Both the position numbers and the translations under genes were made by a program. Below, piece after piece: positions 19,648 through 55,636 of a stretch of 58,283 nucleotides of DNA. The DNA lies in NCBI GenBank assembly GCA_015488885.1, contig WFMW01000069.1, positions 1 through 58,283 on the forward strand, in the 5' to 3' direction. Every line of letters starts with the position of its first letter. Within the stretch, counting starts at the first letter, position 1. The DNA comes from Gammaproteobacteria bacterium. GTDB lineage: Bacteria; Pseudomonadota; Gammaproteobacteria; SZUA-229. A model generated the notes under the pieces. That model saw only the letters and a list, made by a program, of their open reading frames with translations, was not told where the DNA came from and searched no databases.

Positions 19648-19887
19648 TCAGTTTTGCTTCTCCCACTCTGCCCGGGTATAAGCTTTAATTGTCAGGGCAT
19701 GTATGGCACCGCTCTGGATATAATCATTCAACAGGGCATAAACCATTTTCTGCTCGGCTACCATACTCATGCCGTCAAAGATATCGGCAATAACCGTTGC
19801 CGTGTACTTGCTACCATCAGCAGTCACCATGGCCTCACTGCCATCAATACCCGATTCAATAATACGTTTAACTTCTTCAGTGCGCAT
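19648..19887 (-). CDS. ibaG: BolA/IbaG-family protein
   Basis: 79 aa, the IbaG (YrbA) size. Motifs: ADGSKYTATVIADIFDGMSM, VYALLNDYIQSGAIHALTIK and AYTRAEWEKQ. BolA-like proteins bind [2Fe-2S] clusters together with monothiol glutaredoxins. In many gammaproteobacteria ibaG sits before murA; here it is alone, with a MITE-like element in its upstream region. Confidence 0.9.
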   Translation of the reverse strand: MRTEEVKRIIESGIDGSEAMVTADGSKYTATVIADIFDGMSMVAEQKMVYALLNDYIQSGAIHALTIKAYTRAEWEKQN

Positions 19888-19906: not shown

Positions 19907-20115
19907 CAAAATAGGTAACTACTCAGTGAGCAGTCAAAGGTAACAGTAACTACTCAGATGGCCGCTGAGATTTTTTCCAAAAACTGCATAGCGGGTAACG
20001 GATACATAGTGTATTTTTCTAATATACCAGTATTTATTAGTATATTCATTATATTAAGCCATATTTATAGCGTTCCCATGAAATATTCGGGTTAGCTGAG
20101 TAGTTACCAAAATAG
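19907..20115. mobile_element. 193-bp MITE-like element with 8-bp target-site duplication
   Basis: The element 19915-20107 begins GTAACTACTCAG and ends with its exact inverse CTGAGTAGTTAC. It is flanked on both sides by the 8-bp direct repeat CAAAATAG (19907-19914 and 20108-20115). A second direct copy of GTAACTACTCAG lies at 19946-19957. The interior 19958-20094 is about 137 bp homologous to the right half of the element at 30109-30254. It has no ORF, so it is non-autonomous. An 8-bp duplication with GTAA ends would fit an IS66-type transposase among others, but no transposase is in the window. It fills the ibaG-rlmM gap and separates their promoters. Confidence 0.75.
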
Positions 20116-20189: not shown

Positions 20190-21245
20190 ATGTTTAAAAG
20201 AATTCTGCTTATGTGCCGCCCGGGGTTTGAGAAGGAATGCGCCGGAGAAATCATTCAGATTGCTAACAGGCAAGTATCCTCAACCTATATTCAGGCCAGA
20301 GAAAATAGTGGCATCGTCTATCTCGTCAGCCATTCAAACGCTGAAATCACCGGGTTAATCCACACGGTTGTATTCAAACAGCTGGTGTTTAGCCGACAAT
20401 GGATAATGACCACGGATAAAGCGCTTTCACTGCCGGACAACAACCGTCTGCCGGCTATTTTAAACACGATTAAAAAATTCGATTGTCATGTTCAGGCGAT
20501 TGAAATGGATTATGCTGACACCAATGAAGGCAAGGCCTTGAATAAATTTTGCCGCCAGTTTAAACCTCATCTGCTCGAAGCATTACAACAGCACCATTTG
20601 CTGAACGATCACGCCCCCTGGCGGCTACATCTGTTTTTTCATCACTCACAACAGGTTGATATTGGCCTCTCGCCTGTTGCCAACAGTGCGCAGCATGCCA
20701 TGGGTATTCTGCGCCTGAAAATGCCTGCTGCCGCACCCAGTCGTTCCACCTTAAAGCTGGAAGAGGCGATTCACTGGTTTTTATCTCCCGCCCGGCAGCA
20801 GAAATTACTGGTCCCCGGTATGCATGCGGTTGATCTCGGTGCCGCCCCCGGTGGCTGGAGCTGGCAACTGGTACAACGTGGCTGTCTGGTCACCGCCATT
20901 GATAACGGTCCGATGCAGGATGCGTTAATGCATACCGGCATGGTTGAACACCTGCAAACCGATGCTTTTACTTATGCACCGGCAAAAAAAGTGGACTGGC
21001 TGGTGTGTGATATGGCCGAACGCCCTTTGCATGTCAGCCGTTTGATCGCCCGCTGGTTTAACCAGCAACAATGCAGTCACGCCATTTTTAATCTCAAATT
21101 ACCCATGAAAAAACGTCTTGCCTGTGTGCAGGAATGCCTGGCTTTACTGGACAAAAGCCTGTCAAGTGCGAAAATCTCCTACTATATACAGGCCAAACAG
21201 CTTTATCATGACCGTGAAGAAATTACGGTTTGTATCATAACGTGA
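20190..21245 (+). CDS. rlmM: 23S rRNA (cytidine2498-2'-O)-methyltransferase RlmM
   Basis: 351 aa. N-terminal THUMP-like domain (LLMCRPGFEKECAGEI at the start), then a Rossmann methyltransferase domain: VDLGAAPGGWSWQLVQRG (SAM site), VTAIDNGPM, VDWLVCDMAERPLHVSRLIA and NLKLPMKKR (catalytic Lys region). Length and motifs are those of RlmM (YgdE). It is monocistronic. The following 21246-21484 holds no ORF; only a weak inverted repeat (TGTTCTA / TAGAACA) is seen there. Confidence 0.96.
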   Translation: MFKRILLMCRPGFEKECAGEIIQIANRQVSSTYIQARENSGIVYLVSHSNAEITGLIHTVVFKQLVFSRQWIMTTDKALSLPDNNRLPAILNTIKKFDCHVQAIEMDYADTNEGKALNKFCRQFKPHLLEALQQHHLLNDHAPWRLHLFFHHSQQVDIGLSPVANSAQHAMGILRLKMPAAAPSRSTLKLEEAIHWFLSPARQQKLLVPGMHAVDLGAAPGGWSWQLVQRGCLVTAIDNGPMQDALMHTGMVEHLQTDAFTYAPAKKVDWLVCDMAERPLHVSRLIARWFNQQQCSHAIFNLKLPMKKRLACVQECLALLDKSLSSAKISYYIQAKQLYHDREEITVCIIT

Positions 21246-29869: not shown

Positions 29870-29983
29870 CGATAGCGGGTAAGTTTATCACATTTTAGCA
29901 AGGGAACCGAACAAGTCTGAGTCAAACAGATTATGATGAAAATAGCCCTCATTCAAAGCATGGAACACACCATAATTATGCTT

Positions 29984-30254
29984 TAGCCCGGATATTTCAT
30001 GGGAATGCAGACAATGGGGAGATATTCTATAAAAACAGTCAGTGTGTCAGTTTTGTCGATTCGTCGAAAAGCATAGCCATAGCTATGGTTACAGGCGAAT
30101 CGACAAAAATGGCCGCTGATATTTTTCCAAAAACTGCATAGCGGGCAACAGGTACATATTGTATTTTTCTGATACCAATATTTATTAGTATATTTATTAG
30201 TATATTTATTACGTTAAGCCATATTTATAGCGTTCCCATGAAATATCCGGGTTA
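29984..30254. mobile_element. 271-bp non-autonomous element with 25-bp terminal inverted repeats
   Basis: The left end (29984-30008) and the inverted right end (30230-30254) match at 23 of 25 positions around CCCGGATATTTCATGGGAA. Inside is a perfect 13-bp hairpin, TTTTGTCGATTCG (30051-30063) with CGAATCGACAAAA (30096-30108), whose loop holds the palindrome CCATAGCTATGG (30077-30088). The right half (30109-30254) is homologous to 19958-20094. No transposase and no obvious target duplication. The surrounding gap 29870-30317 has no gene. Confidence 0.75.
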
Positions 30255-30317
30255 GGGCAAGGTGTGAAATTTTACTGCAGGCTATTTCAATCGCAAGCAT
30301 CGATTTATATGACCTGT

Positions 30318-38256: not shown

Positions 38257-39258
38257 ATGGCAAAACGTCGCCTCAGCAGACAACAGCAACGCCGTATTGC
38301 CAGCAATCAGCAAAACAAATGTCTGCCTGATACTGTAGCTAAAAATAAGACAGGCAGTAATCAGGCTGACACCATCAATGTGCGTATTATCAGCCATCAT
38401 GGTAAACAGATTATTGCCGAGACCGATAATCAACAGCAGATAAAATGCAAGATACGTCAACACCTCGGTAATATTACCTGCGGTGATTATGTAGCTGTTG
38501 AACAAACCTTAGATACCGAGAACAAGCCCTGCTATATTGCCGTGGCGCTACAGCCACGATATAACCTGTTAGAAAAAACCGGTTTTGCCGGTATAAAAAA
38601 ACCGGTGGCAGCCAATATCGACCAGGTGATTATTGTTTACACACCGCTACCACAGGCCAACACTTATCTTATTGACCGTTATCTGGTTGCCACAGAAAAC
38701 CTGCCAGCAAAAGCCCTGCTGGTTATTAACAAAACAGATTTATTTGATCGTGATAGCCGTCAGACTATCATCCAGATAAAAAAATTATATGAAGATATTG
38801 GCTATCCAGTTATTACCACCAGCGTGAAGAACCATGAGGGCATTGATGAATTAAACATGGCTCTGAAAAACAAAACCAGTATTCTTGTTGGCCTGTCTGG
38901 TGTCGGTAAATCCTCACTGGTGAAAACATTATTACCTGAACAGAATATACGTATTGGTGAAACATCAACGGCCACCGGCGAAGGCAAACATACCACCACC
39001 GTTTCGGCACTCTATCATCTGCACAACAAAGGTATTATTATTGATTCACCCGGCGTGCGCGATTTTACCCCGGTGAATAAATCCATCCAGAGTATCACCC
39101 GGGGGTTTGTAGAGATCCAGCAATATAGCGGACAATGCAGGTTTTCCAACTGTAACCATAGCAATGAACCCGGCTGCATCATTAAAAAGAAAATACAGGA
39201 AAACAGCATCAGCTCGCAACGGTTTAATAGCTATCAACAGATGAAAAAAGAATTATAA
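38257..39258 (+). CDS. rsgA: Ribosome biogenesis GTPase RsgA
   Basis: 333 aa. Circularly permuted GTPase: G4 LVINKTDLFD precedes G1 LVGLSGVGKSSLVKTLLPEQ and G3 IIDSPGVRDF. N-terminal OB domain (ISHHGKQIIAETDNQQQIKC ... GDYVAVE), and C-terminal zinc knuckle CRFSNCNHSNEPGC. It assists late 30S maturation. 32 bp after the cytochrome gene, no clear Shine-Dalgarno sequence, near orn as is usual. Confidence 0.96.
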   Translation: MAKRRLSRQQQRRIASNQQNKCLPDTVAKNKTGSNQADTINVRIISHHGKQIIAETDNQQQIKCKIRQHLGNITCGDYVAVEQTLDTENKPCYIAVALQPRYNLLEKTGFAGIKKPVAANIDQVIIVYTPLPQANTYLIDRYLVATENLPAKALLVINKTDLFDRDSRQTIIQIKKLYEDIGYPVITTSVKNHEGIDELNMALKNKTSILVGLSGVGKSSLVKTLLPEQNIRIGETSTATGEGKHTTTVSALYHLHNKGIIIDSPGVRDFTPVNKSIQSITRGFVEIQQYSGQCRFSNCNHSNEPGCIIKKKIQENSISSQRFNSYQQMKKEL

Positions 39259-39425
39259 CCACTCAACTAATCACTGAAATCCGCCAGCTCTACATTAAAA
39301 AATGATCATTTACGCTTGTGAATCCTGTTTTTCGCCTTGATCTGACTGACGTTAGTGGTAGTCTGAGCTGTTACTGTTTGACTCCTCAATGCGTAATTCG
39401 CAGGAATTTATGAATCACATCAGGT

Positions 39426-54172: not shown

Positions 54173-55561
54173 ATGCTACTTCATCAACGTCGTATATCTC
54201 TATTGCTGACTGGTGCATTAGGCATATTAAGCGGCTGCGCTACCTATCAGCCACAACCCTTAGTGGATCAATCACCGCTGGCAACCAGCCTTAAAATACT
54301 GCAACTTAAGGCATCAGCGCTGCATAATCCACACACTGTGCATGAAATTAATCCGGCTGACGGCTTCGACCTGACCGAAGTGGCAACATTAGCGGTACTC
54401 GGTAACCCGAAGTTACGCGCTCAGCGGGCAAAACTGGGCGTAGCCAGCGCTCAGGCCTTTGCCGCCGGTTTACTGCCCGACCCGCAACTGTCCGCCAGTT
54501 TGGATAAACCCATGGGCGACACCACCGGACTGGTTAATGCATGGGGTGCCGGGATGGCATTTGATATCGTACCGCTGATTACCCGTCAGGCGCGAATTGA
54601 TGCCAAACAGAATGCAAAAACCCAAATAAGACTGGGGCTATTGTGGCAGGAATGGCAGGTGATACAGCAGGCGCAGACACTGGCGGTGCGTTACCGGCTT
54701 GAACAGCAACGGCTGGCATTATTAAACCACATGCGCAGTCTCTATAAAAAACGTTTTCAGCATTCATTGCAGGGTCTGAAGCAGGGCAATATTACACTGG
54801 ATGTTAATGGCACCGACCTGACTGCTCTACTGGGAACATTCAGCCAGATTAATCAGCTTGAACAAACCCATAATCAGACCAGGCACGACCTCAGCCTGCT
54901 GCTGGGACTGCAGGCAGATGTCTCTTTCTCCATCAGCCCTTTACCTGCTGACAATACGTTAACTTCTTCACAGATAAAAAAACGACTGCAGCAGATTACC
55001 AATGTACGCCCGGATTTACTGGCCTTAAAAGCCGGTTACCGGGCGCAGGAGAATCGAGTCAGAGCCGCTATTCTGGCGCAGTTTCCCTCGTTCACTCTGG
55101 GCATCAGTCGCGCCCGTGATACCGGCAGTGTGAATACCAGCGGTTTAACCATTGGCCTGACCATACCGGTGTTTAGTGGCAACCGTGGCGCCATTGCCAT
55201 TGAAAGAGCTACCCGGAGTCTGCTGCAAAGCGAATACCAATCACGACTGGCGCAGGCCGATAACGATGTAAATCGTTTGCTGGATCAGCAGGCTATCATC
55301 ACAGAGCAGCAGGTTAATCTGACCACATATTTACCACGATTACAGGCTATCGTCAGCCGTTCCCGTAGCGCCTATAAACGTGGTGATATTGATGCACTGA
55401 CTTTTCTCAATCTGGAAACCACACTGCTCAACAAACAACTGGAAGTCATCAACTTACAACAAACCCGGTGGCAAATTTATATCGCCCTGAAAACCCTGCT
55501 GGCGCTACCGGAAAATGAAGACCACTCATTAACCGGTAACCAGCTGTTAAAAAATAAGTAA
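54173..55561 (+). CDS. TolC-family outer-membrane efflux lipoprotein
   Basis: 462 aa. Lipobox LSGC (Cys about 22: LGILSGCATYQPQPLVDQSP). TolC/OEP repeats: LTEVATLAVLGNPKLRAQRA, GVASAQAFAAGLLPDPQLSA, LVNAWGAGMAFDIVPL, and in the second half KAGYRAQENRVRAAILAQFP, SFTLGISRARDTGS, ... LNLETTLLNKQLEVINLQQT. Forms the trimeric outer-membrane exit duct. Its stop codon (55559-55561) lies inside a short dispersed-repeat fragment. Confidence 0.92.
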   Translation: MLLHQRRISLLLTGALGILSGCATYQPQPLVDQSPLATSLKILQLKASALHNPHTVHEINPADGFDLTEVATLAVLGNPKLRAQRAKLGVASAQAFAAGLLPDPQLSASLDKPMGDTTGLVNAWGAGMAFDIVPLITRQARIDAKQNAKTQIRLGLLWQEWQVIQQAQTLAVRYRLEQQRLALLNHMRSLYKKRFQHSLQGLKQGNITLDVNGTDLTALLGTFSQINQLEQTHNQTRHDLSLLLGLQADVSFSISPLPADNTLTSSQIKKRLQQITNVRPDLLALKAGYRAQENRVRAAILAQFPSFTLGISRARDTGSVNTSGLTIGLTIPVFSGNRGAIAIERATRSLLQSEYQSRLAQADNDVNRLLDQQAIITEQQVNLTTYLPRLQAIVSRSRSAYKRGDIDALTFLNLETTLLNKQLEVINLQQTRWQIYIALKTLLALPENEDHSLTGNQLLKNK

Positions 55562-55594
55562 CTATTCAGCAAGTAGTCAAATGTAACAGTAACT
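55558..55594. repeat. Fragment of the GTAACTACTCAG element
   Basis: These 37 bp match 19915-19951, the left end of the MITE-like element, at 32 of 37 positions. No inverted partner is present nearby. It includes the stop codon of the TolC-like gene. Confidence 0.8.
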
Positions 55595-55636
55595 GCTGCG
55601 CCATTCACTATTACATCGAAAACATCTGTCAATATC

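What the first reader, a model, noticed from the sequence alone, without database searches (positions are those of the whole stretch)
19907..20115. MITE-like element with clean 8-bp target duplication and a chimeric interior
CAAAATAG flanks a 193-bp unit with exact 12-bp ends GTAACTACTCAG / CTGAGTAGTTAC. The interior 137 bp are the right half of another element (30109-30254). So one mobile unit seems to have captured part of another. The clean duplication suggests recent movement.
Basis: seen in the sequence. Interest (0 to 1): 0.6.

Follow-up and report, generated by a model that had tools for sequence, protein, structure and literature searches.

The report
Nested, internally deleted bacterial MITE insertion
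This is a tiny non-coding jumping element (an IS66-type MITE) that landed between two genes; a second kind of mini-transposon apparently jumped into it and an internal deletion then fused the two, which is a neat fossil of two known processes and not a new kind of system.

Summary
In detail: window 19915-20107 is a 193-bp element with perfect 12-bp inverted ends and a perfect 8-bp duplication (CAAAATAG). The interior is the right half of another repeat family whose full copy lies at 29987-30251.
The outer family (A) is a ~152-bp MITE with a dozen near-full copies and several mini-derivatives in this genome; 16 copies, this one included, keep 7-8/8 of an 8-bp duplication. Full-length insertion sequences in other gammaproteobacteria with the same ends and perfect 8-bp duplications encode a single IS66-family transposase (ISBst12 type), so A is an IS66/ISBst12-derived MITE.
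The inner family (B) has 4-bp YTAR duplications and ends like those of an IS1380-type transposase fragment in the same genome.
The right junction sits exactly where B's 4-bp duplication (TTAG) coincides with a TTAG native to A. The left junction sits at the longest word A and B share (GCCGCTGA). Best explanation: A inserted, B inserted into A's TTAG, then a short-homology deletion removed the middle. 'Capture' is not needed. The chimera is single-copy in this genome and absent from 53 relatives; orthologous gene spacers fit an empty site. 'Recent' cannot be tested.

The parts
19907..19914 (.). left copy of the 8-bp target site duplication CAAAATAG
   Evidence: sequence
19915..19957 (+). left end of MITE family A: GTAACTACTCAG, hairpin-like TGAGCAGTC segment, second GTAACTACTCAG at 19946
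   Evidence: 91% match to full A copies over 19915-19971; alignment
19958..19971 (+). junction zone ATGGCCGCTGAGAT, where A (ATTGCCGCTGAAAT) and B (ATGGCCGCTGAGAT) share 12 of 14 bases; crossover at or near AT/GCCGCTGA
   Evidence: best 14-mer and longest exact word shared by A and B
19960..20091 (+). right half of MITE family B, ending ...CCCATGAAATATTCGGG
   Evidence: 95% to G000:C23:68736-68871
20092..20095 (+). TTAG: native to A and identical to B's 4-bp target duplication
   Evidence: A alignment; B duplications
20096..20107 (-). right terminal inverted repeat of A (CTGAGTAGTTAC)
20108..20115 (.). right copy of the 8-bp target site duplication CAAAATAG
   Evidence: sequence
29987..30251 (+). 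complete family B element (265 bp), flanked by TTAG 29983-29986 and 30252-30255
39256..39394 (-). degenerate further copy of family A
55558..55597 (+). solo left end of family A
19648..19887 (-). BolA/IbaG-like gene; start codon 19 bp from the left duplication
   Evidence: name from own knowledge of the sequence
20190..21245 (+). RlmM-like methyltransferase gene on the other side of the insertion
   Evidence: name from own knowledge of the sequence

Best explanation
The element is a miniature inverted-repeat element (A) derived from an ISBst12-type IS66 insertion sequence and mobilised in trans by such a transposase, giving the 8-bp duplication CAAAATAG. An IS1380-derived MITE (B) then transposed into the TTAG site near A's right end, duplicating TTAG. 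A deletion between the short shared stretch ATTGCCGCTGAAAT in A and ATGGCCGCTGAGAT in B removed A's centre, one TTAG and B's left half, leaving A-left / B-right / TTAG / A-right. Shown: both families, their ends and duplications, parent-type IS with the same ends, junctions at TTAG and at the longest shared word. Inferred: order of events, the deletion mechanism, and whether the fusion arose at this site or elsewhere and then moved here as a unit.
For: A: 16 end pairs with 7-8/8 8-bp duplications, 0 in reversed control. Parent: complete IS with GTAACTACTCAG at both ends and perfect 8-bp duplications (L245 1487 bp, GAAAACCC; L250 1473 bp, GATTTTTT) plus close variants, with single IS66 transposases (PF03050 E 2.6e-42 and 8.5e-41); G037 and G066 IS66 genes run into CTGAGTAGTTAC / CTGAATAGTTAC. 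PMC12898284 reports observed transposition of ISDge4, ISBst12 group, ends GTGACTACTCAGCA / GTAACTGCTCAGCA, 8-bp repeat. B: 14 of 15 distinct copies with perfect 4-bp duplications, mostly TTAA/TTAG, once the spurious second pairing within L004 is left out; the PF13701 (IS1380) fragment at contig C64 has the end CCCGAATATTTCACGC next to TTAG. Junctions: TTAG is present in the A copies at that position; GCCGCTGA is the longest exact word and lies in the best 14-mer shared by A and B. The predicted deletion product matches the observed sequence apart from ordinary copy-to-copy divergence. Other A copies show internal deletions with intact ends and 8/8 duplications (67, 62 and 31 bp). Spacers of most orthologous loci are 65-150 bp against 101 predicted for the empty site.
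Against: No undeleted B-in-A intermediate was found in the genome (one search finds only this junction). The right junction could also arise by recombination at the shared GGTTAG. A 12/14 best match occurs in 5 of 60 shuffles, so that homology alone is weak evidence. The own genome holds no IS66 transposase with matching ends, so the mobilising enzyme is inferred from other genomes.
Confidence: 0.7

Rival explanations
1. The chimera formed elsewhere (by nesting plus deletion) and then transposed into this site as one 193-bp unit using its IS66-type ends.
For: Perfect 12-bp ends and perfect 8-bp duplication; IS66-type ends flank many different interiors in G066, so interiors look interchangeable.
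Against: No second copy of the chimera in this genome or in 53 others of the family.
Confidence: 0.2
2. The interior of a resident A element was replaced by B sequence through two short-homology exchanges or template switches (at GCCGCTGA and GGTTAG), without transposition of B into A.
For: Both junctions lie in short stretches shared by A and B.
Against: Needs two exchanges; the right junction lies precisely at B's terminus next to a YTAR site, as B transposition would give.
Confidence: 0.15
3. Chance or assembly artefact: the inverted ends and duplication are coincidental or a misassembly.
For: The genome is a draft of 72 contigs.
Against: 25 copies of the 12-mer against 0 control, 16 duplications against 0 control, orthologous spacer length fits the empty site.
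Confidence: 0.02

Closest known systems
ISDge4 (ISBst12 group, IS66 family; PMC12898284)
   Same: ends GTGACTACTCAGCA / GTAACTGCTCAGCA, 8-bp duplication, so the same terminal motif and duplication length
   Different: full IS with a 449-aa transposase; our element is 193 bp and non-coding, and its host has no matching transposase
Complete IS66/ISBst12-type IS found here in G373 (L245) and G356 (L250)
   Same: 12-bp ends GTAACTACTCAG at both ends and perfect 8-bp duplications
   Different: 1.47-1.49 kb, encode the transposase; from other families of the class
IS1380-family elements (own-genome fragment, L271)
   Same: end CCCGAATATTTCACGC next to TTAG, like B's CCCGAATATTTCATGG and TTAR duplications
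   Different: coding IS; B is a 140-275-bp non-coding derivative
Bacterial MITEs in general
   Same: short, non-coding, inverted ends, duplications, multi-copy, intergenic
   Different: this copy is a fusion of two MITE families

Membership tests
IS66/ISBst12-derived MITE (outer element) | terminal inverted repeats identical to those of an IS66/ISBst12 element | tested here: met
   12/12 with L245 and L250 ends
IS66/ISBst12-derived MITE (outer element) | 8-bp target duplication | tested here: met
   8/8 here; 7-8/8 in 15 other copies
IS66/ISBst12-derived MITE (outer element) | short, no transposase gene, multi-copy | tested here: met
   193 bp; family copies
IS66/ISBst12-derived MITE (outer element) | matching autonomous IS in the same genome (usual, not required for a MITE) | tested here: not met
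   only one IS66 fragment, with a different end (GTAAGCGCC); not needed to be a MITE, but current mobility is then doubtful
IS66/ISBst12-derived MITE (outer element) | mobilised in trans by the IS66 transposase | not testable with these tools
   needs a transposition assay
IS1380-derived MITE (inner part) | ends shared with an IS1380-type element | tested here: met
   CCCGAATATTTCACGC next to TTAG upstream of a PF13701 fragment; one end only, gene cut by the contig end
IS1380-derived MITE (inner part) | short fixed-length target duplication | tested here: met
   4 bp, 14 of 15 distinct copies perfect

The most novel reading that the evidence does not exclude
The fusion is itself a mobile composite MITE: IS66-type ends can carry arbitrary interiors, so nested insertion plus deletion is a regular route by which new MITE families with swapped interiors arise and spread without their own transposase.
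Probability: 0.15. Interest if true: 0.45.

Novelty: new member of a known kind. Interest (0 to 1): 0.25.

Why it matters
It links an unlabelled, abundant GTAACTACTCAG repeat of gammaproteobacterial genomes to the little-studied ISBst12 branch of IS66, and gives one readable example of how two MITE families fuse by nesting and deletion. No paper on IS66/ISBst12-derived MITEs turned up in the held library, but most subscription papers are not in it.

Tried and rejected
Classical IS66 as parent: the own-genome IS66 fragment ends in GTAAGCGCC, so rejected. A 1352-bp inverted pair in G045:C52 looked like an autonomous IS but holds an ordinary response-regulator-like gene between two separate MITEs. 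TIR copies near contig ends in G045 were at first taken as a sign of a hidden multi-copy IS; they lie about one MITE length from the contig end, so the short MITE itself explains them, though this was not tested contig by contig. Promoter/terminator scan: three weak promoter-like sites (1.8 expected) and two terminator-like hairpins in the element (0.2 expected); suggestive only. Literature searches for IS66 or ISBst12 with MITE gave nothing. The 12-mer's only literature match was in an unrelated paper.

Full report
OBSERVATION. The sequence is as described: CAAAATAG, then a 193-bp unit with exact 12-bp inverted ends GTAACTACTCAG / CTGAGTAGTTAC at 19915-20107, then CAAAATAG. The interior 19958-20095 matches the right half of a second element in the window at 84%, and other genomic copies at up to 95%.

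FAMILY A (outer). GTAACTACTCAG occurs 25 times in the 2.63-Mb genome and 0 times as the reversed control. A ~152-bp consensus has a dozen near-full copies. Among all loci fetched from this genome, 16 end pairs show 7-8 of 8 matching flanking bases, against none in reversed sequence. Lengths range from ~150-193 bp down to 67, 62, 59, 31 and 23 bp, so internal deletions are common while ends and duplications stay intact; in some (for example the 67-bp copy) the deletion end points look like short repeats by eye.

PARENT OF A. In 369 genomes of the class, IS66-like genes related to one in G037 were found. Several lie in complete insertion sequences with the same or similar ends and perfect 8-bp duplications: L245 (1487 bp, GTAACTACTCAG at both ends, GAAAACCC), L250 (1473 bp, GTAACTACTCAG at both ends, GATTTTTT), and near variants L243, L248, L251, L255. 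The L245 and L250 proteins are single-ORF IS66 transposases (PF03050, DUF6444, weak zf-IS66). In G037 and G066 the IS66 gene stops inside the terminal repeat. A published ISBst12-group element, ISDge4, has the same end motif and an 8-bp repeat and was caught transposing (PMC12898284). The own genome holds only an IS66 fragment with a different end, and G045, with 123 copies of the 12-mer, has no IS66 match. These MITE-rich genomes therefore seem to lack the enzyme now, within the limits of draft assemblies.

FAMILY B (inner). One search lists 16 pairings with TSD comparison plus one spurious inner match in L004; counted as distinct copies, 14 of 15 have perfect 4-bp duplications, mostly TTAA or TTAG; the exception is CTAG/CTAA. 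The ends are CCCGAATATTTCATGG-like. A PF13701 (IS1380-type) gene fragment at the end of contig C64 has the end CCCGAATATTTCACGC next to TTAG, so B is most likely an IS1380-derived MITE. The full window copy is 29987-30251 with TTAG on both sides.

THE FUSION. A copies carry TTAG immediately before the right end. In the chimera B's terminal GGG abuts this TTAG, as transposition of B into that site would give. On the left, the sequence changes from A to B in ATTGCCGCTGAAAT / ATGGCCGCTGAGAT. GCCGCTGA is the longest exact word shared by A and B in this orientation, and the 14-mer is their best match; a match this good occurs in 5 of 60 shuffles, so the coincidence of the junction with it is the argument, not its rarity. 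A predicted deletion product aligns with the observed element apart from normal divergence between B copies. Only one such right junction exists in the genome at up to 3 mismatches, and none of 53 relatives in the family has the whole chimera. Recombination at GGTTAG instead of B transposition would give the same right junction and cannot be excluded.

SITE. The insert lies between divergent BolA/IbaG-like and RlmM-like genes, whose start codons are 302 bp apart. Removing the insert and one duplication leaves 101 bp; 14 of 16 orthologous spacers in other genera are 65-150 bp. This supports an empty ancestral site, but these genera are too distant for base-level proof. G021 (spacer 313 bp) carries a different insert flanked by CTAA, with CCCGGATGTTGCA / TGCAACATCCGG ends.

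VERDICT. A known kind of element with a two-step history readable in its junctions. 'Capture' is better read as nested insertion plus deletion; 'recent' is not testable with one genome of the genus.

Noticed in passing
L050 (G000:C67:17748 onward): A 31-bp element, GTAACTACTCAG-ccaggcg-CCGAGTAGTTAC, with a perfect 8-bp duplication GCTTATTT: two IS66-type ends and almost nothing between.
   Followed up: partly
L042 (G000:C29 near 24919): A 23-bp near-palindrome GTAACTACTCACTGAGTAGTTAC (two ends back to back) with 7/8 matching flanks.
   Followed up: partly
L102 (G000:C60:49985) and G045 copies (L204, L206): Copies that start at the inner repeat GTAACTGCTCAG (120-121 bp); L102 has a 7/8 duplication there, so A seems to have two usable left ends.
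   Followed up: partly
G045 (123 copies of the 12-mer): A genome very rich in these MITEs with no IS66 transposase match: apparently orphan MITEs.
   Followed up: partly
G066 loci L208-L210: Elements with the same 12-bp ends but unrelated interiors; the 121-bp one has a perfect 8-bp duplication.
   Followed up: partly
L069 (G021, BolA-RlmM spacer): A different insert at the orthologous spacer, with CCCGGATGTTGCA-like ends flanked by CTAA.
   Followed up: no
L113 (G000:C20:12042-12115): A B end directly followed by an A left end, probably the reverse nesting (A into B).
   Followed up: no
L086 (G000:C46): Short contig with a PIN-like gene pair, a HigA/HigB-like pair and an IS66 remnant; names from own reading of the proteins.
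   Followed up: no
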